Shown: piece after piece, positions 1 to 15,013 of the stretch | How positions within the stretch are numbered: position 1 is the stretch's first letter | Layout: each line of letters starts with the position of its first letter | NCBI GenBank assembly: GCA_030849065.1 | Contig: JASAON010001358.1 | Span: forward strand, 1 to 16,439 | Direction of reading: 5' to 3' | Source of the DNA: Jaenimonas drosophilae | Taxonomy: Eukaryota; Euglenozoa; Kinetoplastea; Trypanosomatida; Trypanosomatidae | Length of the DNA stretch: 16,439 nt | The notes under the pieces: model-generated | What the model was told of the DNA's origin: nothing | What the model saw: the letters and a program-made list of their open reading frames with translations, nothing else | Databases searched by the model: none | Position numbers and translations under genes: made by a program

Positions 1-268
1 GTGCATTCGCAGCAGTCACCGCATCCACAATGCTCTGGCCAAGTGTGGCCGCATTGCTGCTGAAGCTCAACGTGCTGACGGAGATATCTGCATAGCTGTT
101 TGCATTTAAGCTCTTCACTGCTGCCTGCCACCCAAGTGAGATGAGTGGTGGATCGGTGTCCGTCGAACTTGTCAGCGTAGCTTCGATCATAATAGCAGCA
201 TTCCCAACCCCCATGAAGAGAACGCAGAGTGTCGTGAGAGTAACAAGGAATGAAAGGCGCTGGTGCAT
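1..268 (-). CDS. Receptor-type adenylate cyclase-like protein, 5' end only (copy 5)
   Basis: The first 89 codons of a fifth array member run off the left edge of the window. I chose the ATG at 266-268 because an in-frame TAG lies just upstream (284-286). It opens a good signal peptide (MHQRLSFLVTLTTLCVLFMG, then VGNA) followed by the family's ectodomain start. That start includes the I-S-L-G-W-Q-A-A motif and the stretch SIVDAVTAANA, which copy 4 (1247-4975) has as SIVNAVTAANA. Bases 1-24 are identical to 4717-4740 in copy 4, which looks like its closest relative here. The family role is a single-pass surface receptor with an intracellular cyclase-like domain, but that part is outside the window, so catalytic status is unknown. 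Call by homology to the complete neighbours. Confidence 0.88.
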   Translation of the reverse strand, partial: MHQRLSFLVTLTTLCVLFMGVGNAAIMIEATLTSSTDTDPPLISLGWQAAVKSLNANSYADISVSTLSFSSNAATLGQSIVDAVTAANA

Positions 269-1246: not shown

Positions 1247-4200
1247 TCACTTCACGAAGGAATGCTTCGTAGGTACATCACCAGCATCCAGTTGACGTGA
1301 GCTATGCTCCGCCAGCAAGTCCAACATCACCGCACAGAATCCCTCATCAGACAACCTCCCACGCACTGGGTGGCGCAAACCACGTTCATCGCAAAGGGTA
1401 CGCAGAATGACAACACGATCCCTCAACGCAAACGTTTCGTAGCTCAGCGACAACATCTCACGCGACACTGCAAAGTCCCTACTTCGCTCATCATCTGCAT
1501 GACTTCCAAAGACACACATCATCCAAACAGGGTCCTCTTCCCAAATGCAGCACCCATCCATAACGGCACCAAACTCACGGTGCGGAAGCACAACAAGCTC
1601 GAACAACGGCACAGGCTCATCGTACTCATCAAAGGAGTGAGTGCCCACAGACACAGCACTCACACACGCAAGCTGCTTCTCCGTCAGCGCCTCACATGTC
1701 GCTCCAGTCACAAGCACCTGCCCACCGTGCGCAAGTCGCTCCGTCCGCAGCGCAGCAACACACCCACTCCCACGGTACTCATAGTGGTCCGTGTCCACGT
1801 CGTACGCAATGTCCACAACATCCGTGTGCACACCAACACGAACACGCATGCCGCGCACAGCCCCGGATGAAAACCCAAGGCTGCTGTATGCAGCATCCAC
1901 AGCATCAACAGCAGGGCCACGCATCCCATCCAACTCCTTCTGAAGGGCAGCAGCAAACTTCAGTGCACTGTCAGCATGGCGGGACACAACCATGAAGGCA
2001 TCCATCCACGACCCACACTCGTAGCAGTCATGCTTCTCAACAAGACGACGCACAATGTTGCGGTACTCAGCAACACACTCCGCAGATGCATCAGGCACCG
2101 CACGCTGCACATCAGACCACTTCTCCACCTCCACAAACACAACAGTCGTGGCGGCATCACAGTCCACAGGTGCACAGTGCATGGGCTCACCACCAAAACA
2201 GGGAAGCACAGTGCAGCACAGATGAATGCAGAAAATGGCAACGGCAATGAACAAAATGGCCATGATCGCCAGAACCACATACTTCCACGCATCGGAGGCC
2301 TGCTTCTCAGTGTTGCGAGCAGCACGCGTAGTCGTCGTAGTCGTCGTCGTCGTTGGAGGTGCTGGAACTTTGCTTGTTTCTGGTGGAAGAAGGTGACACG
2401 GTGGAAGGGTTGTCGTCGTCGTGGTTGTTGTCGTCGTCGTCGTTGTAGTAGATGGTGTTTTTGTCGTCGTAGTCTGTGGAGGAATGTCTAAGGAAACAGA
2501 GGTTCCATATATCAATGGAAGTGTCTGACCAGCAGCTACAAAGCCATTGGATGGATTCACTACACGTGTATAAGACCACAGCGCAACATTTGCCCCACCA
2601 CCATTGTTCATGCTTCTCGTGTATGGACTCAGTGGTGGATATAGAGTCGCCGTATCTATGTAGGGGCCTAACGGTACACCCGCCACCTCCACAGAGCCCA
2701 AATAGTACAGCGCACGACGCAACGATACGGAGCTGATGTTGTTGGACTTGGCAGTGATCTGGTTCAACGCCATCGCACCAACAAACGCACGCATCGCCGC
2801 AGGAGAGCAGGAAGCTGCACCCATATTCGACACAAACTTCTGAAATATGGTGCCGCTGGAGGAGGCATCTGTCCACGACGGCATGTTCGTCGCAAACAGC
2901 ACCTGAGACATGAATGGTGACGCGGTCGTACCAAAGGCAGACGTGAAGGAAGAGTAGTACAGCGTCAACTCATCAAAAGAGATGATCACGTTGGCATTGG
3001 AGTTCGCAGTCAAGAAGGCACGAAGAGGTGCAAGGTCACTTGGCTGAAGACCAAACACAAAGGTGTAGCCAGTCGTGGGAAGTGTATCCATAAACGAAAT
3101 AGTTGCACCGACTCCATGCGCAGTTGACACAGGTACACCGAAATAGCCCAATGACTGTTTTACAGCACTCAAGATTCCATCATCATTCCCAGTACGTACA
3201 CGGGCGTGAACGCCTCCAGCTATACCAGACGCCTTCTGCTTCGCAAGCGTACCCAAGTAGCTCGCAGCAATGTAGATTTGTTGGCGAAGCGTCGCAGACA
3301 CATACATTGCATTCGGTGATGGGTCATGGTCCAACACTGGCGGTGACACAATCGGCTCCACAAAGAAGTAGTCACTCATCGCAGAGGGCGTGAAGGGTGC
3401 GGCAACAGGTCCAAACACAACAGACAACGTCGTCATATTTGTCTGCTTCCTCACAGAAGTCGCTGCATCCGCGGGAGTCGCGGCTGTCAGTGCGGCAGAC
3501 GGTGCTGTAAAGGCAAGTGGTGACGTCTGTCCATACGTCGAGCCCTTCGCGGCCTCCGCAAGGGCGGCGCCCATCGATGAAGCAATGGATGACAACACTT
3601 GGCTGCTCTGTAGTGCAACCGTCGCGCCATAAATTGAACGGGGACGTCCAGTGACATTCTGGTTGGTGTAACAGGGTGTGTTGGGGAAGTAGTACTCGCC
3701 GTTCCCCGCCACTGCAATGGCGGAGTTGCGGCTACTCGTCGAAGCAGCAACACTTGCAATTTTCAAAATGGTCGCATAGTGACCTCCTTGGTTGCAGCTA
3801 CATGCGGCACCTAAGCGGCTTCCCGTTACGTCATTGGAACAGCTTCCTCCATAATTTCCCAGCACAATATCCTCGATATTGTACCGATTTTGGAGGAAAA
3901 CATTCTTCTTTAGCATCTCTCGGTTAACGCCTCCATAGGTATTGTACATGCTGCCGATGTAGTTAATCTGCTGCATGAAAACCCATCCGTAATACATGAG
4001 ATAGCCACTGGTAGTTTTCAGCGACGTAGCCGTAAGGGAGGCGTCAAAGGTACTCATGTCACTCTGAAAAGACACCGCAGCTAAGCGGGAAGAGTCTGTT
4101 GGGATGGGCAGTGGGGCAGTGTAACGGAGGTTATTGTAGCTCACCACACTGTTGCTGTTCTTCAGGTACAGTGTCTGGTACGCAGTTGTGGTGGTGTACA

Positions 4201-4975
4201 TCAACGCAAATGGCATCATGATGTAGAAGCTGTTCGATACATCCATCACAAAGGTATTCTGGATCAGGGCAGTGAAGAACGACGTCGTGTGGTCTCCACG
4301 GGCACCAAACAGAAACATGCACGTCGGTGTCAACGCCATGTACGCATTGAATGTATCCGTACTGAAGGAACTGGCTACGGGCTCATTATACACATAAGGT
4401 GCACGGAGCCCGAGCATCAGAAGCTGATCAGTCATCAATGTCTGCAGTTTGCCATCATACACACCACCACTCAGGTACATGAATCCAACATTTCCATACC
4501 TTACAGCTCCCTGTGAATTGCTCCCAAACATCCAACTCATCAGTGAGATCAGCTCCATCATGGGATCACACGTCATGAAGTACACGTTGTCGCTCCACGT
4601 ACGTACTCCCGTCGACTGTGTGTAAGGACCAAACAACACAAGGTTCGCATCAGTGAAGGCAGTGCTCTGCATCACAGCCTGTGTCGCATCATCGTCATAC
4701 AGGCCAAACACCATCAGTGCATTCGCAGCAGTCACCGCATTCACAATACTCTGAGCAAGCGCAGTCCCAGAGCCGCTGAAGCTCACGGTGCTGCTGGTGA
4801 TGCCTGCATTGCTGCGGCTGTTTAAGCCCTTGGCTGCTGCCTGCCACCCAAGTGAAATGAAAGGTGCATCTGGATTGTTGAAGTCCGACAATGCAGCCTC
4901 CAAGATAACCATGCCTTGTACCAGTTGCAGGCAGAGAGACAATGTCAAAATAAGTACGTGGTGAGTACGGTGCAT
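1247..4975 (-). CDS. Receptor-type adenylate cyclase-like protein, degenerate cyclase domain (copy 4)
   Basis: 1242 aa type-I membrane protein. Start: ATG at 4975; the open frame continues to 5068, but that codon is GTG, unlikely in a eukaryote, whereas the ATG opens a signal peptide (about 1-21). The ectodomain (22-830) carries GPYTQSTGVR (116-125), QNRYNIEDIVLGNYGG (362-377), a Cys-rich C-x-C-N-Q-G-G motif (392-398) and P-C-Y-T-N-Q-N-V-T (434-442, with an N-glycosylation sequon). All resemble trypanosome receptor cyclase ectodomains. Next come Thr runs of 14 (843-856) and 9 (875-883) around LPPC, a TM helix (899-921), a class III cyclase-like domain (938-1136) and a 106-residue tail. Catalytic positions: metal-1 Asp is Glu949, base-binding Lys is Gly988, metal-2 Asp992 is kept, base-binding Asp is Glu1066, transition-state Asn is Val1073, Arg1077 is kept. 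Adenylate cyclase activity is therefore doubtful. Probably a surface sensor; ligand unknown. Confidence 0.93.
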   Translation of the reverse strand: MHRTHHVLILTLSLCLQLVQGMVILEAALSDFNNPDAPFISLGWQAAAKGLNSRSNAGITSSTVSFSGSGTALAQSIVNAVTAANALMVFGLYDDDATQAVMQSTAFTDANLVLFGPYTQSTGVRTWSDNVYFMTCDPMMELISLMSWMFGSNSQGAVRYGNVGFMYLSGGVYDGKLQTLMTDQLLMLGLRAPYVYNEPVASSFSTDTFNAYMALTPTCMFLFGARGDHTTSFFTALIQNTFVMDVSNSFYIMMPFALMYTTTTAYQTLYLKNSNSVVSYNNLRYTAPLPIPTDSSRLAAVSFQSDMSTFDASLTATSLKTTSGYLMYYGWVFMQQINYIGSMYNTYGGVNREMLKKNVFLQNRYNIEDIVLGNYGGSCSNDVTGSRLGAACSCNQGGHYATILKIASVAASTSSRNSAIAVAGNGEYYFPNTPCYTNQNVTGRPRSIYGATVALQSSQVLSSIASSMGAALAEAAKGSTYGQTSPLAFTAPSAALTAATPADAATSVRKQTNMTTLSVVFGPVAAPFTPSAMSDYFFVEPIVSPPVLDHDPSPNAMYVSATLRQQIYIAASYLGTLAKQKASGIAGGVHARVRTGNDDGILSAVKQSLGYFGVPVSTAHGVGATISFMDTLPTTGYTFVFGLQPSDLAPLRAFLTANSNANVIISFDELTLYYSSFTSAFGTTASPFMSQVLFATNMPSWTDASSSGTIFQKFVSNMGAASCSPAAMRAFVGAMALNQITAKSNNISSVSLRRALYYLGSVEVAGVPLGPYIDTATLYPPLSPYTRSMNNGGGANVALWSYTRVVNPSNGFVAAGQTLPLIYGTSVSLDIPPQTTTTKTPSTTTTTTTTTTTTTTLPPCHLLPPETSKVPAPPTTTTTTTTTRAARNTEKQASDAWKYVVLAIMAILFIAVAIFCIHLCCTVLPCFGGEPMHCAPVDCDAATTVVFVEVEKWSDVQRAVPDASAECVAEYRNIVRRLVEKHDCYECGSWMDAFMVVSRHADSALKFAAALQKELDGMRGPAVDAVDAAYSSLGFSSGAVRGMRVRVGVHTDVVDIAYDVDTDHYEYRGSGCVAALRTERLAHGGQVLVTGATCEALTEKQLACVSAVSVGTHSFDEYDEPVPLFELVVLPHREFGAVMDGCCIWEEDPVWMMCVFGSHADDERSRDFAVSREMLSLSYETFALRDRVVILRTLCDERGLRHPVRGRLSDEGFCAVMLDLLAEHSSRQLDAGDVPTKHSFVK
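1970..2206. repeat. 237-bp block identical to 6843-7079 (inside copies 4 and 3)
   Basis: Aligned by eye, these 237 bases match 6843-7079 without a difference, including synonymous positions. They encode the juxtamembrane FGGEP segment and the first third of the cyclase-like domain through VVSRHAD. The flanks differ at once: T versus G at 1969/6842 and C versus T at 2207/7080. This fits recent gene conversion between copies, or recent duplication of this segment. Confidence 0.9.
2184..2228. repeat. 45-bp block shared only by copies 4 and 2 (matches 12219-12263)
   Basis: This run is identical to 12219-12263 in copy 2 and encodes the end of the TM helix and the IHLCCTVLPCFGGEP juxtamembrane segment. 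Copy 3 differs at the corresponding place (HLGGRVLPCF). The sharing pattern (copies 4 and 2 here, copies 4 and 3 immediately beside it) marks the array as a mosaic. Confidence 0.85.
2328..2354 (-). repeat. Threonine-codon run, membrane-proximal (9 Thr), copy 4
   Basis: Nine consecutive ACN codons (ACG and ACT) form the membrane-proximal part of the ectodomain stalk, just outside the TM helix. On the plus strand it reads as a GTC/GTA/GTT trinucleotide tract. Probably an extended, O-glycosylated mucin-like stem (inference). Confidence 0.9.
2408..2449 (-). repeat. Threonine-codon run (14 Thr), copy 4
   Basis: Fourteen consecutive Thr codons, using all four ACN forms (ACG, ACA, ACC, ACT), directly precede the conserved LPPC motif. 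The mixture of synonymous codons argues that threonine itself is maintained, rather than the run being a fresh slippage expansion of one trinucleotide. Confidence 0.9.
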
Positions 4976-6116: not shown

Positions 6117-9100
6117 TTAGCCCACCTTCTTCCGGTGCTGAAATGATCCATTGCAACTACGACTCAAATCTTCAGCAAACACATTCAGGACCATGTCAGC
6201 GTAGCGCTCATCAGACACCGATCGACCACGTCCTGGTACCATCAGCCCGTGCTCCTCACACTTCCCTCGCAAGACAGTAATACGCTCCTTCACAGGAAGT
6301 GGAAGGTAGACCATGTTCAGTACTTCACGGCATACAGCAAGCTCAGAAGAAGAATCTGCATTTCTATCTAGCTCTTCGCTGCAGAGGCTCAGCACCCGAT
6401 CGCCGTCTCGCACTGACACAGGAAGCGCAACAGTTGCGCCAAACTCACGGTGCGGAAGCACAACAAGCTCGAACAACGGCACAGGCTCATCGTACTCATC
6501 AAAGGACTGAGTGCCCACAGACACTGCACTCACACGCGCAAGCTGCTTCTCCGTCAGCGCCTCACACGTGGCTCCAGTCACAAGCACCTGCCCACCGTGC
6601 GCAAGTCGCTCCGTCCGCAGCGCAGCAACACACCCACTCCCACGGTACTCATAGTGGTCCGTGTCCACGTCGTACGCAATGTCCACAACATCCGTGTGCA
6701 CACCAACACGAACACGCAGCCCACGCACACACGCAGACGACGGCAGACCAAGCCCAGCGTACGCAGCATCCACAGCATCAACAGCAGGGCCATGCATCCC
6801 ATCCAACTCCTTCTGAAGGGCAGCAGCAAACTTCAGTGCACGGTCAGCATGGCGGGACACAACCATGAAGGCATCCATCCACGACCCACACTCGTAGCAG
6901 TCATGCTTCTCAACAAGACGACGCACAATGTTGCGGTACTCAGCAACACACTCCGCAGATGCATCAGGCACCGCACGCTGCACATCAGACCACTTCTCCA
7001 CCTCCACAAACACAACAGTCGTGGCGGCATCACAGTCCACAGGTGCACAGTGCATGGGCTCACCACCAAAACAGGGAAGTACGCGGCCACCTAAGTGGGC
7101 AATCAACAAAACCGTCGCCACAAGAAGGATTCCCAGAATTACCAAGACAACATACTTCCATGCATCGGACTTGATATGTTTCTTGGGAATGAGTGTTGTG
7201 GTTGTAGTTGTAGTTGTTGTGTGTGTTGGATGAAGTGTCGTGGGAGCTGCAGTAAGGTCACAAGGAGGGAGGGTCGTGGTTGTGGTTGTGGTGGAGGTTG
7301 TGGTGGTGGTTCCAGGTGTCGTCGTCGTCGTCGTCGTGGAGGGTGACGTTGTACCAGCTAAGGCTGCTGGGTTTTGGTAGAGCACCGTCATGGTGGTGGG
7401 TGCTGCGATCAATGCAGTGGCTGGATTCACAATCCTAGTGTAGGACCACACAGATATATTTCTCGCACCAAAGTTGGCCAACCGCGAAAGAGGATAAGCA
7501 GGGGCATAGAGAGCGTTGCTTTGTAGGAATGGGCCATAGAGCTGACCGCCCAACTGGAAGAATGTACGTTCGTAGAGGGTTGCTTGAAGAGACTGTGCTG
7601 TGGTGCTTCTTGTTCGGTTGTTGCTTGATAATGTTGATAGGGCTGCGACAAACGCACGCATGCCAGCGGGGGTGTGAGCTGCAGCGGGGGTATCCGAGAC
7701 AAACTTCTGGAAGATAGTGCCTGTGCCAGGCTCCGTCCATGAGGGTACATTCGTGGCGAAGAGCACCTGGTTCATAAACGGGCTGGACGTGGTGCCAAAC
7801 GCTGTGGTGAAGTCGTCATAGAATACCGTCAAGTCGTCAAACGACACAATGATGTATGCGTCCGTGTTGGTTGTTAGAAATGGCTTGAGGGAGGCAATGA
7901 GTGAAGCGTTCAGTCCAATGACGAAGGTATATCCGCTCGTGGGGAGCATCTCGATGAAGTTGACAGTCTTGCCTACACCCATTGCTGATCCAATGGGTAC
8001 GTTGAAGAAGCCAAGGGAGTATCGTACCATTTCGAGCACTAATGCATCATTCCCCGTTGAGCACCGTAGGTTTACTCCAGCAGACAACAGGGTCGACTTC
8101 TGGTCAACCAAGCTCCCAAGGTAACTGGCAACAACAAAAATTTGCTGGCGGAGTGTTGCAGAGAGGTAGATGGCGTTGGTTGCCGTGCTGGGCTCCAGAG
8201 CGGGCGGGATGACGATGGGGTCTACAAACAAGTAGTCCGGCATCGATTCCGGGATGAAGGGAGAAGCAATCGGACCAGTAATGATGGAAAGCGGCATCAC
8301 AGCAGACTGCGTAGCCACAGCAGCAGCCGCATCGCTCGGTGTGGAAGCCGTCAGCGAAGTCATGGACAGCGTCAGGGGTGAAGCCTTCAGCTCCGCTTCA
8401 CCAGCGCTGAGGCCAGAAAATGCGGCGGCAGCCTGACTTGCCAGGCTAGATGCCTCTGCATTGCTCGTCATACTGACAACAACTCCATTCACCGGAAGGA
8501 AGGTCACCGTGACGTTCTGATTAGTGTAGCACGGATTGTTGGGGAAGAAGTAGTCTGATGCAGTAGCAATCCCCACACCCGAGTTATCACCATTCACCGC
8601 AGCAACGGAGGAAATGTAGCCGACAGAGACGTGGTGCCCTCCCTGATTGCACGAACAAGCTGCGCCAAGTCGTGTGGCAGTTTTCTCGTTGGGGCACGTG
8701 CCTCCATAGTTCCCCAAAACAATGTCACTCAAGTAGTAGCGGTTCTGGCGGAACATGTTTTCCTTTAAGTACTGTCGTGGATACGTAGTCATGCCTCCAG
8801 GTGAGTAAATGAAGGTGACGTAGTAAATCTGCTGCATAAAAATCCAACCGTAGTACATCAGGTAGCCACTCGTGGTCTGAAGTGAGCTTCCAGTGAGTCC
8901 AATTCGTGTGTTCACATCAGCCTGGAATTGAGTAGATGAAGCATAGGTCGTATCCGTGGGTGAGGGAAGTGGCGTGCTGTAGCGTATGTTGCCCATTGGA
9001 ATGACACTAGCAGCGTTCTGCAAGTACAAGGATTGGTACGCAGCTGCCGTCGTGTACATCAACGCAAAGGGCATCATCACGTAAAAGCTAGCACCATTTG

Positions 9101-9863
9101 TCAACACATATGCATCTTGAATAAGGGCCTGAAAGAAGGATGCTGTGTGAGCTCCACGCGCACCAAACAGGAACATGCACGTTGGCTGCTGTGCCATGTA
9201 GGTGCTGAAAGTGGCGGTACTGAACGGACTTCCAACAGCTGCAGAGTACGAAAGCGGAGGCTGCAGCCCCAGTAACGACAGCTGAGCTGACATCAAGTCT
9301 GTCAGTTTGCTTTCAAAGACACCGCCACTCAAAAACATCCAACCAACACGAGTCGTCTTCACCTTCCCAGCCGCGTTGGCAGAAAAGGTCCAGCTCAGCA
9401 GCCCAATCAGCTCCGCCATGGGATCTGCAGTCATAAAGTACACATTATCGTTCCAGTGGCGCACGCCCGTCGACTGCGTGTAAGGGCCCATCAGAACCAG
9501 GTTGTTCGAAGTGAACTCTGGTGCATTCATCACGGCGAGTGTGGAATCATCGTCGTAAATGCCGAATTGCATGACGGCAGAGGCAGCGTAGGCTGCTGAG
9601 TATATGCTGCTGGCAATAGAAGCGCTGGGGCTTGAGCTCACGCTCAACGTGCTCCAACCCACGCCCCAGCTACTCCTGGAATTCAATCCAGTGACGGCAG
9701 CCTTCCAACCAATTGATATCATTGGCTGGTCAGGGTTGTTCACACCATCAACGAGGCACTCGAGAACAATGGGATCACCCAACACCAGTGGCACTACTCC
9801 ACATAAAAGGAGGAGAAACAGCAGCAGAGCCATCGTACTGCGAGGTATTGAACGCTGGGCCAT
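6117..9863 (-). CDS. Receptor-type adenylate cyclase-like protein, degenerate cyclase domain (copy 3)
   Basis: 1248 aa type-I membrane protein. The ATG at 9863 is the first in frame after a TAA (9960-9962) and aligns with the short N-termini of the sister genes; an internal ATG at codon 11 could also begin the signal peptide (hydrophobic MALLLFLLLLCG). Ectodomain landmarks: GPYTQSTGVR (126-135), IVLGNYGG, C-S-C-N-Q-G-G, and P-C-Y-T-N-Q-N-V-T. The stalk has Thr runs of 7, 5 and 7, then LPPC, then a run of 9. TM helix 904-926, cyclase-like domain 943-1142, tail 106 residues. Catalytic positions: Glu954 for metal-1 Asp, Gly993 for Lys, Asp997 kept, Glu1072 for Asp, Val1079 for Asn, Arg1083 kept. 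The juxtamembrane segment differs from the other copies (HLGGRVLPCF, not HLCCTVLPCF). Same pseudocyclase reading as its neighbours; receptor role inferred from architecture. Confidence 0.94.
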   Translation of the reverse strand: MAQRSIPRSTMALLLFLLLLCGVVPLVLGDPIVLECLVDGVNNPDQPMISIGWKAAVTGLNSRSSWGVGWSTLSVSSSPSASIASSIYSAAYAASAVMQFGIYDDDSTLAVMNAPEFTSNNLVLMGPYTQSTGVRHWNDNVYFMTADPMAELIGLLSWTFSANAAGKVKTTRVGWMFLSGGVFESKLTDLMSAQLSLLGLQPPLSYSAAVGSPFSTATFSTYMAQQPTCMFLFGARGAHTASFFQALIQDAYVLTNGASFYVMMPFALMYTTAAAYQSLYLQNAASVIPMGNIRYSTPLPSPTDTTYASSTQFQADVNTRIGLTGSSLQTTSGYLMYYGWIFMQQIYYVTFIYSPGGMTTYPRQYLKENMFRQNRYYLSDIVLGNYGGTCPNEKTATRLGAACSCNQGGHHVSVGYISSVAAVNGDNSGVGIATASDYFFPNNPCYTNQNVTVTFLPVNGVVVSMTSNAEASSLASQAAAAFSGLSAGEAELKASPLTLSMTSLTASTPSDAAAAVATQSAVMPLSIITGPIASPFIPESMPDYLFVDPIVIPPALEPSTATNAIYLSATLRQQIFVVASYLGSLVDQKSTLLSAGVNLRCSTGNDALVLEMVRYSLGFFNVPIGSAMGVGKTVNFIEMLPTSGYTFVIGLNASLIASLKPFLTTNTDAYIIVSFDDLTVFYDDFTTAFGTTSSPFMNQVLFATNVPSWTEPGTGTIFQKFVSDTPAAAHTPAGMRAFVAALSTLSSNNRTRSTTAQSLQATLYERTFFQLGGQLYGPFLQSNALYAPAYPLSRLANFGARNISVWSYTRIVNPATALIAAPTTMTVLYQNPAALAGTTSPSTTTTTTTPGTTTTTSTTTTTTTLPPCDLTAAPTTLHPTHTTTTTTTTTLIPKKHIKSDAWKYVVLVILGILLVATVLLIAHLGGRVLPCFGGEPMHCAPVDCDAATTVVFVEVEKWSDVQRAVPDASAECVAEYRNIVRRLVEKHDCYECGSWMDAFMVVSRHADRALKFAAALQKELDGMHGPAVDAVDAAYAGLGLPSSACVRGLRVRVGVHTDVVDIAYDVDTDHYEYRGSGCVAALRTERLAHGGQVLVTGATCEALTEKQLARVSAVSVGTQSFDEYDEPVPLFELVVLPHREFGATVALPVSVRDGDRVLSLCSEELDRNADSSSELAVCREVLNMVYLPLPVKERITVLRGKCEEHGLMVPGRGRSVSDERYADMVLNVFAEDLSRSCNGSFQHRKKVG
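6571..6746. repeat. 176-bp block identical to 11733-11908 (inside copies 3 and 2)
   Basis: These 176 bases match 11733-11908 without a difference and continue with only a few substitutions to about 12036. The first 158 bases also match copy 4 at 1701-1858. They encode the second half of the cyclase-like domain, from the inserted C-V-R-G loop through R-V-R-V-G-V-H-T and Y-E-Y-R-G to VTGAT. This is the most homogenised part of the array. Confidence 0.9.
7194..7220 (-). repeat. Threonine-codon run, membrane-proximal (9 Thr), copy 3
   Basis: Nine consecutive ACA/ACC/ACT codons just outside the TM segment, equivalent in position to the nine-Thr run of copy 4 but with different codons (no ACG). 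The amino-acid run is conserved while the DNA is not. Confidence 0.88.
7272..7337 (-). repeat. Threonine-rich stalk repeat (7+5+7 Thr), copy 3
   Basis: Three Thr runs separated by P-G and S precede the LPPC motif. One run is almost pure ACG (six ACG plus ACA), while the others mix ACC, ACA and ACG. This makes it the stalk with the most interruptions among the three complete genes. Confidence 0.88.
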
Positions 9864-11275
9864 GCCACAGGACAGTTGCTGAGGTAGTCGAGAGAGTGCA
9901 CAGAGAATGTGGAGCGGTGCAGGCCAAGCAGAGTCAAGAAAGAGCGAACGTAAAATTGCTTATGTGTGAAGAAGCTAACCAATGAGGTCTAACAATCAGC
10001 GTGAGAAGGCGACAAAGATTAGCAGCGAGCATGGCATGCCATATCATGTTCCTTGTGACAAAAGTGCATTGAGCACAGAAGCGGCCGCATCCACAGAGAC
10101 ACGGAGAGTGATGATCGTATCGGGAGAGCCGTTGAATGAATCTCACGAGGAAAGACGACATGAAAAATCTCATATCGTGAGCGCACTCATGAGTTTGCAA
10201 TAGGAACCCGCGGAGTTGGTAAGAATCGTTTTGCACGTGCTCCCATGTGTGGAATTAAAAAGCTCTACTTGCGTGCACAAGAAGATATGCAGAGTATATA
10301 AACGGAACTACGCACAGTTCGAGTTGGGAAGCTGCAGGAAGAGGCATCGCCAACAAAAATGGTTCATTCCAGTAGACAAGAGCATTCAAAGCTCAGTTCT
10401 AGCATTGCGAAGTAGCTATATACAGTGCTGTGGTCGTACACGGCAACAGCTATGGAAATGTAATCAATATCAGCATCTCACACTTCCAGAAAATAAAGGG
10501 GGGAAAACACTTTTACAACATGATGAAGCATTGAAACAAGTAAGCCCTACGGCAACAAAAGTGTGTATCATCAACCAAGTCCTCAAGAACAGCCTTGCAA
10601 TTGCTCATGACGAACGCAAAGTACAACCACACACATAAGAACTAAAAAAGCACTCCTGGCACTTGACGAACACAGTGAAGTCTTTTCCACTTCTTCAGCC
10701 ATCAACCGCCGATAGCTCACAATGTTCTTCAGAAAAAGATGACAGTCATGGAAACGTGCGCGTACGAGGTAAATGCACAACAAAGGGGGAAAGGAAAAAT
10801 CAATATCGCAAATAGATGCACGGACAGAGAAGTGTATCAGCGGCACATCACACGGCCGTAGCTCTACCGTAATCCATTCTCAGGAAGAAGGATAGAGGAG
10901 TGGGACGCATACAAGCAAAACAAAAAAGAACTTTAGCCCCACCCACAGAAACGCTCTGGACCCAATCACAGGAAGTCTTCGATCCGTCAACGAGTAAAAG
11001 AACTACCACCAAAGCAATGGCATTCTTCACTCCATCGAAGAGAGGTCAATTGGGCCAATAAGCGCCATGTACTCCACGTGGTCTACTACCGTTACAGCCA
11101 TATCTGAGCAACATCCACGAACAACAGCCACCATATTACGGACCAAACAAGTGCATCAACCTTCACCTTCATCAATCAGCACAAAACCAATGAAGTATTC
11201 ACACGACTTGTCGAGTTCAACCTAAGGAATCCACTCTCTCCATCCTTTGACACCTGAACTCACACACTCCACCTT
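9864..11275. other. Intergenic region between copies 2 and 3
   Basis: The longest spacer of the window, about 1410 bases, with no supportable gene on either strand. Pyrimidine tracts on the minus strand face 9930-9955, 10496-10512 and 10779-10800 (purine runs on plus). The open frames here (longest about 140 codons, plus strand, 10216-10638) have no recognisable domain and oppose the transcription direction. I see no tRNA-like cloverleaf or other RNA gene by eye. Confidence 0.7.
9879..9958 (-). promoter_or_regulatory. Candidate trans-splice acceptor for copy 3
   Basis: A pyrimidine-rich run (opposite 9930-9955) is followed on the minus strand by 78 nt with no AG dinucleotide, then CTCTCTCGACTACCTCAG with AG at 9879-9880. 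An AG-free interval before the used AG is typical of trypanosome acceptors. The resulting 5' UTR would be only about 16 nt, short but possible. Confidence 0.42.
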
Positions 11276-14200
11276 CTATTTTTTCACTCCCATTCCTAAG
11301 GCTGTCTCACTTTGCTGCGTACTGCACATACTATCTGACAGAATTTTGAGTAATGATTGGGCGTAGCGTTCCTCTGTAACGCCACTACCGCGCTTTGGTA
11401 CGTGCAGTCCTCGCTCAAGGCACTTGTCCCTCAGCACTCTCGCCCGCTGACTCACTGGAACTGAGCTGTGCGCAATTGTGATAATCTCCAGAGCCAGCGC
11501 CAGTTGAGACTCCTCCTCCGCTGTCGCGGGGTCCACTTCCATGCACAACCTCGTCACAGGGTCTCGCAGCTCCAACGTTGCTGGGGAACCACTGACGCCA
11601 CCAAACTCACGTTGCGGAAGCACCACAAGCTCGAGCAACGGCACAGGCTCATCGTACTCATCAAAGGAGTGAGTGCCCACAGACACAGCATGCACCTCCC
11701 CAAGCTGCTTCTCCGTCAGCGCCTCGCGCGTCGCTCCAGTCACAAGCACCTGCCCACCGTGCGCAAGTCGCTCCGTCCGCAGCGCAGCAACACACCCACT
11801 CCCACGGTACTCATAGTGGTCCGTGTCCACGTCGTACGCAATGTCCACAACATCCGTGTGCACACCAACACGAACACGCAGCCCACGCACACACGCAGAC
11901 GACGGCAGCCCAAGCCCAGCGTACGCAGCATCCACAGCATCAACAGCAGGGCCATGCATCCCATCCAACTCCTTCTGAAGGGAGGCAGCAAACTTCAGTG
12001 CACTGTCAGCATGGCGGGACACAACCATGAAGGCATCATTTATGCTACCAGCCTCGTAGCAGTCATGCTTCTCAACCAGGCGACGCACAATGTTGCGGTA
12101 CTCAGCAACGCACTCGGTTGCAGCATCAGGAGCCAGATGTTGAAGGTCGGTCCATTTCACCACCTCAGCGAAGATCATCGTGGTGGCGGCATCACAGTCC
12201 ATTGGCGCGTTATTGAATGGCTCACCACCAAAACAGGGAAGCACAGTGCAGCACAGATGAATGGCAAAGAGCACGGCTGCCACAAGAAGCAATGACAGGA
12301 TGACCAACAGTACGTACAGCCCCGCATGAGATGATCCGCTATGGGATGCGGGTGGCAGCAATGTGGGTGGTGCCGTCGTGGTAGGCGCTATGGTTGTGAT
12401 GACAGTGGGAGCAGGTGACGTAGTTAGTTTGCAGGGTGGTAACGTGGTTGTCGTTGTCGTCGTGGTCGTCGTTGTGGTGGTGGGTGTGGCCGTGGACGTC
12501 GTCGTGGTAGTGGTAGGCTCCACGAGGTCAGGGAGTTTGGCATACAGCACCGTGTGGGCCTCTGGGTCATACACGTAGGCAGTGCTCGTGCTGACAATAC
12601 GGGCATAGGACCACACCGCAATCTCCCGGCCGCCATAGTTCATGGGTCCATTCATCGGTGACGTCTTTGGAAGGACGACACTGCTCTGGATATAGGGGCC
12701 CAGGACTTGTCCGCCCACTTCAAAGCTGCTCAGCTTGTAAAGCGCGCGCTGCAAAGCCAAGGCACTGATGTTGCGAGAAGCCGCGGTGATGGAATCCAAG
12801 GCGATGGCTCCCATGAATGCGCGCATTGCGGAAGGTGTGTGAGCACTGCTCGCAACGTTGTTCACGAAGGTCTCGAAAATGCTACCCGAGCCGGACTGCG
12901 TCCACGAGGGCAAGTTCGTTGCAAACAGCACCTGGCTCATGAAAGGGCTAGAAGAGGTACCAAATGCAGTCGTAAAGTTGGAGTAGTACACGGATATCTC
13001 CTCAAACCACAAAATAACGTAAGCGGAAGGGTTGGCTGTGAGGAACGTCTTGATTGGAACAAGGTCGGATTGCTGCAAACCGAAGAGAAAGGTGTAGCCA
13101 GTGGAAGGAATCATCTCTGCCAAGGTCACGGTGCCTCCGCATGCTATACCGCTGTTAAGTTGTACGTTGAAATGTCCCAGTGAACCACGTATCATGGAGA
13201 GCACCATCGCATCATTTTCTGTCCGCACTCGAGCATGAACGCCGGCGCCAACAATACCTGTGGTCGTTGAAGCAAGTGTGCTGAGATACTTTGCGACGGC
13301 GTGGATCTCTTGGCTCAGCGAGGGTGTCACGTACATGACATTCGGAGAAGCGCTACGAACAAAAGGTGGAGGTACAACGATGGGCTCCACAAAAAGGTAG
13401 TTGCTCATTGCCTCGGGTGTATAGGGCTCCGCCACCGGGCCAAAGAGAACGCCAAGAGTTGTGGTGGTTGCTTGTGTCGCAACCGCAGCAGGCGCATCCG
13501 CGGCCGTTGCAACCGACAGTGCAGCTGCTGGAGTGGTGAACTTTAGTGGGGATTTCAAGCTGTAGCGCGCGGTATTCGTAGCTTCTGAAATCGCCAGCCC
13601 AATCTGAGTACCAATATCTGACGTGAAGCTGTTATCGCCAAGAGACAGAGCAATTCCGTATACCTTCGAAGGCGCGCCAGCAGTGACATTTTGGTTGGTG
13701 TAGCATGGTGTATTGGGGAATGTTTGCTGTCCAATTCCATTAATGACAACGTTAGACGACACGCCACTGGTGGCCGCAGATATAGTGCCAAACTGACCGA
13801 TGCCCACGTAGTGACCGCCCTGGTTGCACTCACAGGCAGCACCGAGTCGTGTGCCAGTGACGGAGTTGCCGCAGGAGCCTCCGTAGTTGCCGAGAACAAT
13901 GTCTCCAATTAGGTAGCGGTTTTGAAGGAAAACATTGGTCTTGATGGCTGCGAGGTTCCTGCCACCGCCGGTATTATACATGTTGGTGATGTAGTACAAT
14001 TGTTGCATGAAGAGCCATCCGTAGTACACCAGATAGCCACTGGTCGTTTGAAGCTGCGTCCCGCCAATGTTGCTATTCATTGCGGCGATGTCTGCCATAA
14101 AATTCTTCGATGCAAGATTGCTACTGTCGCTTGGAGAGGGTAGCGGGGTAGAGTAGCAGAACCTGTTCTTCGCCAAAACAGAGCTCGAGCTGGCCATGTA

Positions 14201-15013
14201 GAGTGGCTGATAGGCAGCTCCCGTGGAGTACATCAACGCAAAGGGGAGCATCATGTAGAAGGTGTTGGCATTGGCCAGTACATAGGTATTCTGAATGAGA
14301 GCTGTGAAGAAGGAGGTCGTGTGAGGACCACGGGCTCCAAACACAAACATGAATGTCGGCTTCTGGGCCATGAACGTGTTGAAGATGGTCACATCGAAGG
14401 TGTTTGCCACGGGCTCGTTGTAGTAGATTGGTGAATTCAGCCCTAGCATCAACAGCTGATTGTTGAGGGCATTGTAGATGGTACTATCGAAGATGTTGCT
14501 CGAGAGAGTCATGAGGCCGATTTGGCCCAACAACAAGTTGGATGGTCCAGAGAACATGTAATTCATCAATGCAATCAGCTCCGACACTGGATCGGGTGAC
14601 ATAAAGTACACGTTGCTGCTCCACTGCCTCACTCCAGTGGACTGCGTGTACGGGCCAAACAGTACGAGATTACCAGTAGTGAAAGCTGAGTCCTGCATAA
14701 TGTTGTAGGTTGAATCGTCATCGTACAGACCAAAAACAGCCAGTGCGTCGTTCTTCGTTGCAGATGCCACAATGCTTTGTGGGAGGCCCGTCCCGCTCGC
14801 AAAGCTCTCAGTAACACTGTTGATGTTAGCAGAGCTCTTCGTATTGAGGTTTTGCGCAGCACCTTTCCATCCAAGCTGGATCCACTCAACGTCAGCGTCG
14901 GAGCTACCACTGAGCACAGCCTCCATTAGTGTAATCGCGCTACTGCTTGTGCAGCAACATATGACTGTAATTACACACAGAGCAAGATACACATGACTGG
15001 ATCTGTGCACCAT
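11276..15013 (-). CDS. Receptor-type adenylate cyclase-like protein, degenerate cyclase domain (copy 2)
   Basis: 1245 aa type-I membrane protein. The frame opens to 15061, but that codon is TTG; the first ATG is at 15013 and starts a signal peptide (MVHRSSHVYLALCVITVICC, cut near 26). Ectodomain landmarks: GPYTQSTGVR (120-129), QNRYLIGDIVLGNYGG, C-E-C-N-Q-G-G, P-C-Y-T-N-Q-N-V-T. The Thr stalk has runs of 6 and 13 before LPPC but no third run next to the membrane; a P/T/A/S-rich segment replaces it. TM helix 898-921, cyclase-like domain 938-1138, tail 107 residues. Catalytic positions: Glu950 (metal-1 Asp), Gly989 (Lys), Asp993 kept, Glu1068 (Asp), Val1075 (Asn), Arg1079 kept. The first third of the cyclase-like domain (FAEVVKW, EAGSINDAFM) differs from the other two copies, yet the same catalytic residues are missing. 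Probable receptor pseudocyclase. Confidence 0.93.
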   Translation of the reverse strand: MVHRSSHVYLALCVITVICCCTSSSAITLMEAVLSGSSDADVEWIQLGWKGAAQNLNTKSSANINSVTESFASGTGLPQSIVASATKNDALAVFGLYDDDSTYNIMQDSAFTTGNLVLFGPYTQSTGVRQWSSNVYFMSPDPVSELIALMNYMFSGPSNLLLGQIGLMTLSSNIFDSTIYNALNNQLLMLGLNSPIYYNEPVANTFDVTIFNTFMAQKPTFMFVFGARGPHTTSFFTALIQNTYVLANANTFYMMLPFALMYSTGAAYQPLYMASSSSVLAKNRFCYSTPLPSPSDSSNLASKNFMADIAAMNSNIGGTQLQTTSGYLVYYGWLFMQQLYYITNMYNTGGGRNLAAIKTNVFLQNRYLIGDIVLGNYGGSCGNSVTGTRLGAACECNQGGHYVGIGQFGTISAATSGVSSNVVINGIGQQTFPNTPCYTNQNVTAGAPSKVYGIALSLGDNSFTSDIGTQIGLAISEATNTARYSLKSPLKFTTPAAALSVATAADAPAAVATQATTTTLGVLFGPVAEPYTPEAMSNYLFVEPIVVPPPFVRSASPNVMYVTPSLSQEIHAVAKYLSTLASTTTGIVGAGVHARVRTENDAMVLSMIRGSLGHFNVQLNSGIACGGTVTLAEMIPSTGYTFLFGLQQSDLVPIKTFLTANPSAYVILWFEEISVYYSNFTTAFGTSSSPFMSQVLFATNLPSWTQSGSGSIFETFVNNVASSAHTPSAMRAFMGAIALDSITAASRNISALALQRALYKLSSFEVGGQVLGPYIQSSVVLPKTSPMNGPMNYGGREIAVWSYARIVSTSTAYVYDPEAHTVLYAKLPDLVEPTTTTTTSTATPTTTTTTTTTTTTTLPPCKLTTSPAPTVITTIAPTTTAPPTLLPPASHSGSSHAGLYVLLVILSLLLVAAVLFAIHLCCTVLPCFGGEPFNNAPMDCDAATTMIFAEVVKWTDLQHLAPDAATECVAEYRNIVRRLVEKHDCYEAGSINDAFMVVSRHADSALKFAASLQKELDGMHGPAVDAVDAAYAGLGLPSSACVRGLRVRVGVHTDVVDIAYDVDTDHYEYRGSGCVAALRTERLAHGGQVLVTGATREALTEKQLGEVHAVSVGTHSFDEYDEPVPLLELVVLPQREFGGVSGSPATLELRDPVTRLCMEVDPATAEEESQLALALEIITIAHSSVPVSQRARVLRDKCLERGLHVPKRGSGVTEERYAQSLLKILSDSMCSTQQSETALGMGVKK
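12443..12514 (-). repeat. Threonine-rich stalk repeat (6+13 Thr), copy 2
   Basis: Thirteen Thr codons (12443-12481) directly precede LPPC, and six more (12497-12514) lie before them, separated by S-T-A-T-P. All are ACN codons of mixed third base. The membrane-proximal nine-Thr run of the other two genes is absent here. Confidence 0.88.

What the first reader, a model, noticed from the sequence alone, without database searches (positions are those of the whole stretch)
6117..15013. Same catalytic losses in all copies: a pseudocyclase subfamily rather than one decayed gene
Copies 2 and 3 carry the same four substitutions (Glu950/954, Gly989/993, Glu1068/1072, Val1075/1079) and keep the same Asp and Arg. 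Copy 2 has a clearly different first third of the domain (FAEVVKW, EAGSINDAFM) yet shares the losses. All three frames are intact over more than 1240 codons. This implies selection for a non-canonical function across a family, with the losses older than the array. An altered nucleotide specificity is the main alternative, because both base-recognition positions changed together.
Basis: partly seen in the sequence, partly recalled or inferred. Interest (0 to 1): 0.8.

Follow-up and report, generated by a model that had tools for sequence, protein, structure and literature searches.

The report
Receptor family with dead cyclase domains
In this unnamed single-celled organism, nearly every receptor adenylate cyclase gene found, including the three in this window, seems to have lost residues needed to make cyclic AMP, yet the copies tested are still preserved by selection, so these receptors probably work without making the messenger they are named for.

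Summary
Three intact genes (1242, 1248, 1245 codons) encode receptor adenylate cyclase-like proteins reading E-G-D-E-V-R where T. brucei GRESAG4 and two receptor-type relatives in this genome read D-K-D-D-N-R. Eight copies on three contigs form one supported clade. It is part of something larger: of 58 cyclase domains found behind a receptor ectodomain in this genome, 2 keep all six catalytic residues and 51 keep two or fewer. Domains in the best-suited degenerate pairs are under purifying selection (dN/dS 0.22-0.24, intervals below 0.4). One inference needs correcting: gene conversion is concentrated in this domain (A-B synonymous differences 6-10% inside, saturated outside), so identical losses in A, B and C are not independent. 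Asp-to-Glu and Lys-to-Gly are older, since unconverted copies share them; the other two losses cannot be dated from the array. Altered nucleotide specificity is unlikely because a metal Asp and the transition-state Asn are also gone. Most likely these are receptor pseudoenzymes whose cyclase-like domain dimerises or scaffolds.

The parts
1247..4975 (-). Copy A: receptor pseudocyclase gene, 1242 aa, open
6117..9863 (-).
11276..15013 (-).
1..268 (-). 5' end of a fourth copy, cut by the start of the window
   Evidence: start codon and hydrophobic N-terminus in the translation; 1-159 is 86% identical to C123:19259-19417 (gene E)
1556..2203 (-). Copy A cyclase-like domain (class III type, E-G-D-E-V-R)
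6429..7076 (-). Copy B cyclase-like domain (E-G-D-E-V-R)
11591..12238 (-). Copy C cyclase-like domain (E-G-D-E-V-R)
1566..2206 (-). Gene-conversion island in A, 95.8% DNA identity to 6436-7079, with saturated synonymous divergence from B on both sides
6436..7079 (-). Gene-conversion island in B (95.8% to A; 97.8% over 6438-7079 to C123:21287-21928)
11601..12241 (-). Partial conversion island in C (89.9% to B overall; second half nearly identical)
4559..4870 (-). Second likely conversion tract, in the N-terminal ectodomain of A: 90.7% identical to C123:19101-19412 (gene E)
2507..3628 (-). Copy A periplasmic-binding-type ectodomain (PF25493)
7377..8495 (-). Copy B periplasmic-binding-type ectodomain (PF25493)
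12542..13663 (-). Copy C periplasmic-binding-type ectodomain (PF25493)
7002..7004 (-). Copy B Glu954 at the first metal Asp position
   Evidence: base coordinates by arithmetic from the residue number
6885..6887 (-). Copy B Gly993 at the base-recognition Lys position
   Evidence: coordinates by arithmetic
6648..6650 (-). Copy B Glu1072 at the base-recognition Asp position
   Evidence: coordinates by arithmetic
6627..6629 (-). Copy B Val1079 at the transition-state Asn position
   Evidence: coordinates by arithmetic
12164..12166 (-). Copy C Glu950 at the first metal Asp position
   Evidence: coordinates by arithmetic
12047..12049 (-). Copy C Gly989 at the base-recognition Lys position
   Evidence: coordinates by arithmetic
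11810..11812 (-). Copy C Glu1068 at the base-recognition Asp position
   Evidence: coordinates by arithmetic
11789..11791 (-). Copy C Val1075 at the transition-state Asn position
   Evidence: coordinates by arithmetic

Best explanation
These are receptor pseudocyclases. Each is a single-pass surface receptor with a signal-peptide-like start, a periplasmic-binding-type ectodomain, a Thr-rich stalk, one membrane helix and a class III cyclase-like domain inside the cell. The domain is kept but both halves of the shared active site are damaged: one metal Asp on one side; base-recognition Lys and Asp and the transition-state Asn on the other. They should make no cAMP as homodimers, and should supply no complete site to a heterodimer with a working cyclase. 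Shown here: the losses, intact frames, purifying selection on the domain in the pairs suited to the test, conversion concentrated in the domain, and coexistence with two fully canonical receptor cyclases. Inferred: the domain is kept as a dimerisation and docking module. It would let a diverse set of ectodomains pair with each other, with the few active cyclases (dampening or tuning them), or with a flagellar scaffold, so that ligand sensing is carried without local cAMP synthesis.
For: Residues against solved T. brucei cyclases, with a canonical own-genome control. Eight-copy clade, 100/96. 54 of 67 cyclase domains have neither half-site complete, 7 keep the metal half only, 6 keep both. 2 of 58 domains with a PF25493 ectodomain keep all six residues. 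dN/dS in degenerate pairs: D-G 0.22 (0.13-0.34), E-H 0.24 (0.15-0.37), C237-C54_9550 0.19 (0.11-0.28), C230-C237 0.22 (0.13-0.34), against 0.16-0.21 in the three canonical C47 pairs. Conversion island: A-B run of 90 matching polymorphic third positions, 0 of 10,000 shuffles as long. From papers: deleting the catalytic domain of T. brucei ESAG4 abolishes CARP3 binding, other AC isoforms are enriched with ESAG4 in pull-down, and the authors suggest that heterodimers may activate or inhibit dominantly (PMC9481589, passages); T. brucei catalytic domains show a low dimerisation tendency, while receptor ACs form dimers in vivo (PMC6027212, passages).
Against: No activity, expression, partner or localisation data. 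Glu in place of Asp might still hold a metal, and the second Asp and the Arg are kept. CARP3 is reported to have no sequence homologue outside Trypanosoma, so that scaffold may not exist here. Purifying selection could act only on folding and trafficking. Conversion is not strictly limited to the domain (A-E tract in the ectodomain). Some degenerate pairs do not give a clear dN/dS: C253_1674-C253_5860 is 0.71 (0.50-0.97), and C123_20975-C67_1250 is 0.43 (0.17-1.06). The AF2 model of the domain is poor (mean pLDDT 49).
Confidence: 0.62

Rival explanations
1. Surface-coat or receptor diversity family: the ectodomain does the work (ligand capture, adhesion or variant antigen), and the cyclase-like domain is kept only for folding, membrane delivery and flagellar targeting, with no signalling role.
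For: Ectodomain synonymous differences are pS 0.68 or more in 19 of 21 pairs of the seven full-length copies. 94 ectodomain matches in the genome, 36 of them not paired with a cyclase domain in my set, though some of those are second pieces of one gene or lie outside what I fetched. In T. brucei the positively selected AC codons are largely extracellular (PMC2386149, passages).
Against: dN/dS on the degenerate cyclase domain (0.20-0.24 in E-H and D-G) is about as low as on the ectodomain (0.12-0.25). In T. brucei, deleting the last 112 residues did not affect ESAG4 flagellar targeting, but that does not test the cyclase domain itself.
Confidence: 0.25
2. Changed substrate: the domain still binds or cyclises a nucleotide, with Gly and Glu replacing the Lys/Asp base pair.
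For: Both base-recognition positions are changed to the same residues in all eight copies. A solved bacterial cyclase with KDA changed to EGY is listed as 'in complex with GT...' (title cut in the listing), so these positions can be re-tuned.
Against: The first metal Asp is Glu and the transition-state Asn is Val (7) or Ile (1) in the eight copies. Relatives of the clade carry other residues at the base positions (R/E in C160, G/Q in C253_41559, G/I in C267), which does not look like a fixed new specificity.
Confidence: 0.07
3. Neutral decay kept looking uniform by gene conversion: the dead domain spreads by copying and has no function.
For: Conversion is strong in this domain and can carry a loss from copy to copy.
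Against: dN/dS intervals lie below 1 in the diverged degenerate pairs D-G, E-H and in close pairs of other clades. Frames over 1240 codons stay open at near-saturated synonymous divergence. Stop-bearing fragments exist elsewhere (4 of 94 ectodomain matches), so decay occurs in this genome and looks different.
Confidence: 0.04
4. Obligate heterodimer halves, as in mammalian membrane cyclases: degenerate copies complement each other.
For: Seven of 67 domains keep both metal Asp but not the other half-site.
Against: No domain keeps only the base/transition-state half (0 of 67), and the window copies keep neither half. A window copy can therefore complete no site.
Confidence: 0.02

Closest known systems
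Trypanosomatid receptor-type adenylate cyclases (GRESAG4/ESAG4 of T. brucei, TcAC, Leishmania RAC)
   Same: Architecture: hydrophobic N-terminus, periplasmic-binding-type ectodomain (PF25493), one membrane helix, class III domain whose best solved relatives are 1fx4 and 1fx2.
   Different: Four of six catalytic residues replaced in the window clade. 27 residues between the two aligned stretches of the domain against 45 in 1fx4. Thr-rich stalk.
Class III adenylate/guanylate cyclases (PF00211)
   Same: Over the Pfam cut-off in all three copies; the Foldseek matches shown are class III cyclases, from a weak model.
   Different: Lower scores than the canonical receptor copies (44-53 bits; 93 for C165 and 116 for C201); active-site residues missing.
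Pseudoenzymes that regulate an active paralogue (for example trypanosomatid deoxyhypusine synthase with its dead paralogue, PMC3663545, listing; pseudokinases, PMC3014569, listing)
   Same: Dead copies kept next to active copies.
   Different: No regulation of an active cyclase has been shown here; the scale is most of a family.
Dominant-negative cyclase subunits discussed in PMC9481589 (passages): an invertebrate soluble guanylate cyclase subunit, short AC8 isoforms, ESAG4
   Same: A subunit without a working site would silence a shared-site dimer.
   Different: Single subunits or isoforms there; here it would be a natural gene family. The passages do not say how the ESAG4 case was made.

Membership tests
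Trypanosomatid receptor-type adenylate cyclase (as protein family) | Periplasmic-binding-type cyclase ectodomain PF25493 | tested here: met
   195-217 bits in the three copies, cut-off 27.2
Trypanosomatid receptor-type adenylate cyclase (as protein family) | Single transmembrane helix between ectodomain and class III domain, N-terminal signal peptide | tested here: met
   two hydrophobic peaks per copy, one at the N-terminus and one at about residue 900; hydropathy only
Trypanosomatid receptor-type adenylate cyclase (as protein family) | Cyclase domain closest to GRESAG4 among solved structures | tested here: met
   (copy B): 1fx4 3.5e-23, 1fx2 2.7e-22; the other two of the four matches are not cyclases
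Active class III adenylate cyclase | Two metal-binding Asp | tested here: not met
   first is Glu, second is kept
Active class III adenylate cyclase | Base-recognition Lys and Asp | tested here: not met
   Gly and Glu
Active class III adenylate cyclase | Transition-state Asn and Arg | tested here: not met
   Asn is Val, Arg is kept
Active class III adenylate cyclase | Measured production of cAMP | not testable with these tools
   needs purified domain or cells
Guanylate cyclase by changed specificity | Guanine-type residues (Glu at the Lys position; recalled rule) with metal and transition-state residues kept | tested here: not met
   Gly at the Lys position; metal Asp and Asn lost
Pseudoenzyme kept by selection | Catalytic residues lost with open frame and dN/dS clearly below 1 | tested here: met
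   dN/dS from paralogue pairs, the window copies themselves being partly converted
Pseudoenzyme kept by selection | A demonstrated non-catalytic role | not testable with these tools
   no expression or partner data

The most novel reading that the evidence does not exclude
In this lineage the receptor-cyclase family has been repurposed almost wholesale into receptors that do not make cAMP. The two canonical receptor cyclases found would be the only cAMP-making receptor partners, and more than fifty ectodomains would report through cyclase-shaped dimerisation or nucleotide-sensing domains that gene conversion helps to keep interchangeable.
Probability: 0.35. Interest if true: 0.8.

Novelty: new variant of a known kind. 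Interest (0 to 1): 0.62.

Why it matters
Large receptor adenylate cyclase families in trypanosomatids are usually read as many cAMP-producing sensors. If most members in one lineage cannot make cAMP yet are preserved, counts of 'adenylate cyclases' do not measure cAMP signalling, and the open question of why the family expands (ligand sensing, dimer composition or surface diversity) becomes testable, because here catalysis is already separated from the rest by evolution. The conversion island is also a warning: shared catalytic losses in tandem arrays cannot be counted as independent or dated without looking at synonymous sites.

Tried and rejected
Altered substrate specificity, neutral decay and complementary half-sites were considered and are in the rivals. 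A DNA-level constraint (for example an overlapping gene) as the cause of the identical DNA was rejected because the identical stretch differs from pair to pair: A-B match over residues 929-1033, while E matches the others only in the second half. A single origin of the coupled Asp>Glu and Ser>Trp (position +4) signature, seen in 25 of 67 domains, was tested: holding those 25 rows together as one clade is rejected (p-AU 1.1e-54; 65 rows, the long rows C275_52289 and C222_8365 left out). That means at least two origins or later reversals, and the backbone of the tree is weakly supported, so I do not build on it. An aromatic at +4 is common in other class III cyclases (recalled), so I drop the idea that Trp alone blocks the pocket.

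Led nowhere: a search of 5.8 billion proteins found nothing at E <= 0.001 among the 7990 candidates scored. AlphaFold2 on three near-identical rows gave mean pLDDT 49; Foldseek still ranked 1fx4 first (4e-10), which adds little to the sequence match. The most relevant survey, Durante et al. 2020 on trypanosomatid adenylate cyclases, is not held; I saw its title and one sentence about it in a review, so I cannot say whether it reports degenerate members. My literature searches were nine; none of the listed titles or abstract starts describes a degenerate receptor-cyclase family, and 'pseudocyclase' with 'adenylate cyclase' gave 0 papers. Leishmania RAC-B as a receptor cyclase without detected activity is recalled, not checked.

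Limits: counts are lower bounds (the genome search scores only its best candidates, and I fetched 60 regions). One duplicate frame of a C215 domain was dropped before alignment. Catalytic columns in very diverged rows rest on a MAFFT alignment and may be off for some. C347 did not align in its first half; it is counted in the 68 but left out of the tree and of the half-site count. C47_12551 keeps six of six but lacks a stretch of the domain. C123_20975 lies next to an N in the assembly. dN/dS is by Nei-Gojobori with codon bootstrap; converted stretches make some pairs unsuitable, so I rest on D-G, E-H and pairs outside the array. The listing was cut in the middle, so I speak only of the pairs printed.
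Full report
What is there. The window is G000:C67:1-16439 of an 18.8 Mb, 370-contig assembly. Three long open frames lie on the minus strand: A 1247-4975, B 6117-9863, C 11276-15013, plus the 5' end of a fourth at 1-268. Each has a hydrophobic N-terminus, a PF25493 ectodomain (195-217 bits, cut-off 27.2), a Thr-rich stalk, a membrane helix near residue 900 and a PF00211 domain (44-53 bits, cut-off 21.9). The only cyclases among solved structures that match copy B are T. brucei GRESAG4.3 and 4.1. This is a receptor-type adenylate cyclase array of the kind known from kinetoplastids.

The losses. Against 1fx4, copy B reads FVE for FTD, ECGSWMD for EVKTVGD, YEYRG for YDYYG, and Val for the Asn of NxxxR. 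All three copies carry Glu, Gly, Asp, Glu, Val, Arg at the six positions. As a control, the own-genome copy C201 has all six canonical residues and aligns to 1fx4 over its whole length at 7.2e-76. A domain from another degenerate clade, C258, still matches 1fx4 in its first part (2e-12).

The family in this genome. Searches with the ectodomain, with PF00211, with the copy B domain (E up to 10) and with PF25493 gave 57, 33, 72 and 94 matches. From the window and 60 fetched regions I extracted 68 cyclase-type domains. Six of 68 keep all six catalytic residues: C201, C165, C155 and three on C47. 58 of 68 lie within 1.5 kb behind a PF25493 match on the same strand; of these 2 keep six of six (C201, C165), 1 keeps four (C306), 4 keep three, and 51 keep two or fewer. 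C47 and C155 have no PF25493 match. Half-sites, C347 left out: 6 of 67 keep both halves, 7 keep only the two metal Asp, 0 keep only the base/transition-state half, 54 keep neither; the window copies are among the 54.

The tree. With the six catalytic columns removed, 67 domains gave a tree in which the canonical six plus C306 form one clade (99/98). The eight copies on C67, C123 and C215 form another (100/96), joined by C160_19784 (99/93) and C253_41559 (99/96), with C267 weakly (81/79); ten inner branches are unsupported. The kept/lost states need at least 6, 5, 4, 5, 4 and 11 changes for D1, K, D2, Db, N and R. So the window copies are neither scattered decays in a canonical clade nor the only degenerate clade.

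Gene conversion. Between A and B, synonymous differences are pS 0.77 in the ectodomain, 0.74 in the membrane region, 0.06 and 0.10 in the two parts of the cyclase domain and 0.73 in the tail. blastn shows the island directly: 6436-7079 against 1566-2206 at 95.8%, and 6438-7079 against C123:21287-21928 at 97.8%. Of 1074 polymorphic third positions among seven genes, A and B match in a run of 90 (residues 929-1033), reached in 0 of 10,000 shuffles. In 8 of 21 pairs the longest run lies in the domain and is reached in at most 8 of 10,000 shuffles; other pairs, such as A-G, B-G and B-H, have no unusual run. Conversion is not limited to the domain: A and E share an unusual run in the N-terminal ectodomain (residues 105-126, 0 of 10,000; 90.7% identity over 313 columns). 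E_C123 is like its partner H_C215 outside the domain (third-position identity 0.64) but less so inside (0.39), as expected if its second half was copied from the others. The same half-domain pattern occurs in other arrays: C253_1674/5860 (first part pS 0.67, second 0.06), C222_30602/34000 (0.55, 0.16) and the canonical C47 pairs (0.37-0.50, 0.13-0.24); C230/C39_654 shows the reverse (0.09, 0.23). Identical losses in A, B and C therefore cannot be counted as independent. Asp>Glu and Lys>Gly are nevertheless shared with E and H, whose first half differs from the rest with dS 1.3 to 4.3, so they most simply predate the split of these copies. Glu and Val in the second half cannot be dated from the array. 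C160, outside the conversion, also has Glu there but Arg instead of Val.

Selection. For the two pairs that sit in matching order on C123 and C215, dN/dS is 0.25 (ectodomain), 0.20 and 0.21 (cyclase parts) for D-G, and 0.12, 0.21 and 0.24 for E-H. Over the domain core the values are 0.22 (0.13-0.34) and 0.24 (0.15-0.37). Close degenerate pairs from other clades among those printed give 0.19-0.53, with intervals below 1; the mosaic C253_1674/5860 pair gives 0.71 (0.50-0.97); canonical C47 pairs give 0.16-0.21. Within the array, nearly identical pairs are uninformative (C123_20975-C67_1250 0.43, 0.17-1.06). Very distant pairs have values near 1 with near-saturated synonymous sites and say nothing. 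Four of 94 ectodomain matches contain stops, so true pseudogene fragments exist and look different.

How it most likely works. Shown: a conserved receptor with a cyclase-like domain that has lost residues from both halves of the shared active site, is held by selection where this can be tested, and exchanges sequence with its relatives mainly in that domain. From established knowledge: class III sites form at a dimer interface, so a subunit lacking both halves gives no complete site with any partner. From papers: T. brucei receptor cyclases dimerise, are enriched together with other isoforms, need the catalytic domain for binding to CARP3, and dominant-negative heterodimers are discussed (PMC9481589 and PMC6027212, passages). 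Inferred: the domain is kept for dimerisation or docking. The main rival is that the ectodomain alone matters and the inner domain serves folding and delivery.

What is known. T. brucei has about 80 receptor cyclases, T. vivax around 30, T. cruzi around 15 and Leishmania around 6 (PMC6027212, passage); that review says most of the T. brucei ACs appear to be involved in a cAMP burst. Positively selected AC codons in T. brucei lie largely in the ectodomain (PMC2386149, passages). Tandem receptor-cyclase arrays and concerted evolution in tandem arrays are described for Leishmania (PMC4413820, passages). None of the nine searches listed in Tried and rejected showed a degenerate receptor-cyclase family, but the key survey is not held. 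I rate this a new variant of a known kind: pseudoenzymes within a known receptor family, unusual for covering nearly all members found.

Noticed in passing
window 1-268 (-): Start of a fourth array member cut by the window start; 1-159 is 86% identical to gene E on C123.
   Followed up: partly
window 4559-4870 and C123:19101-19412 (L013): A second likely conversion tract, in the N-terminal ectodomain of copy A and gene E (90.7%).
   Followed up: partly
L014 (C123:18500-22892), near C123:22190: Contig end carries an N and a second start of the same cyclase domain in another frame: probably an assembly join of two more copies.
   Followed up: partly
C253, C222 and C47 arrays (L018, L032, L033, L060-L062): The second half of the cyclase domain is more alike than the first in other arrays too, both degenerate and canonical.
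   Followed up: partly
C47 (L060-L062) and C155 (L063): Canonical cyclase domains without a PF25493 ectodomain: a different architecture holding four of the six fully canonical domains.
   Followed up: no
C347:84952-85482 (L059): Best PF00211 match in the genome (150 bits) in a 2427-codon frame; probably another cyclase class, not properly scored here.
   Followed up: no
25 of 67 domains: Glu at the first metal Asp goes with Trp four residues on in 25 of 27 Glu-bearing domains, in clades that the tree keeps apart.
   Followed up: partly
32 of 68 domains: The second metal Asp is Gly in a large part of the family, often with a Glu just before it.
   Followed up: no
C368:72152 and C368:78580 (L044, L045): Two cyclase domains 6.4 kb apart, identical over the 163 compared codons: a recent tandem duplication or conversion.
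   Followed up: no
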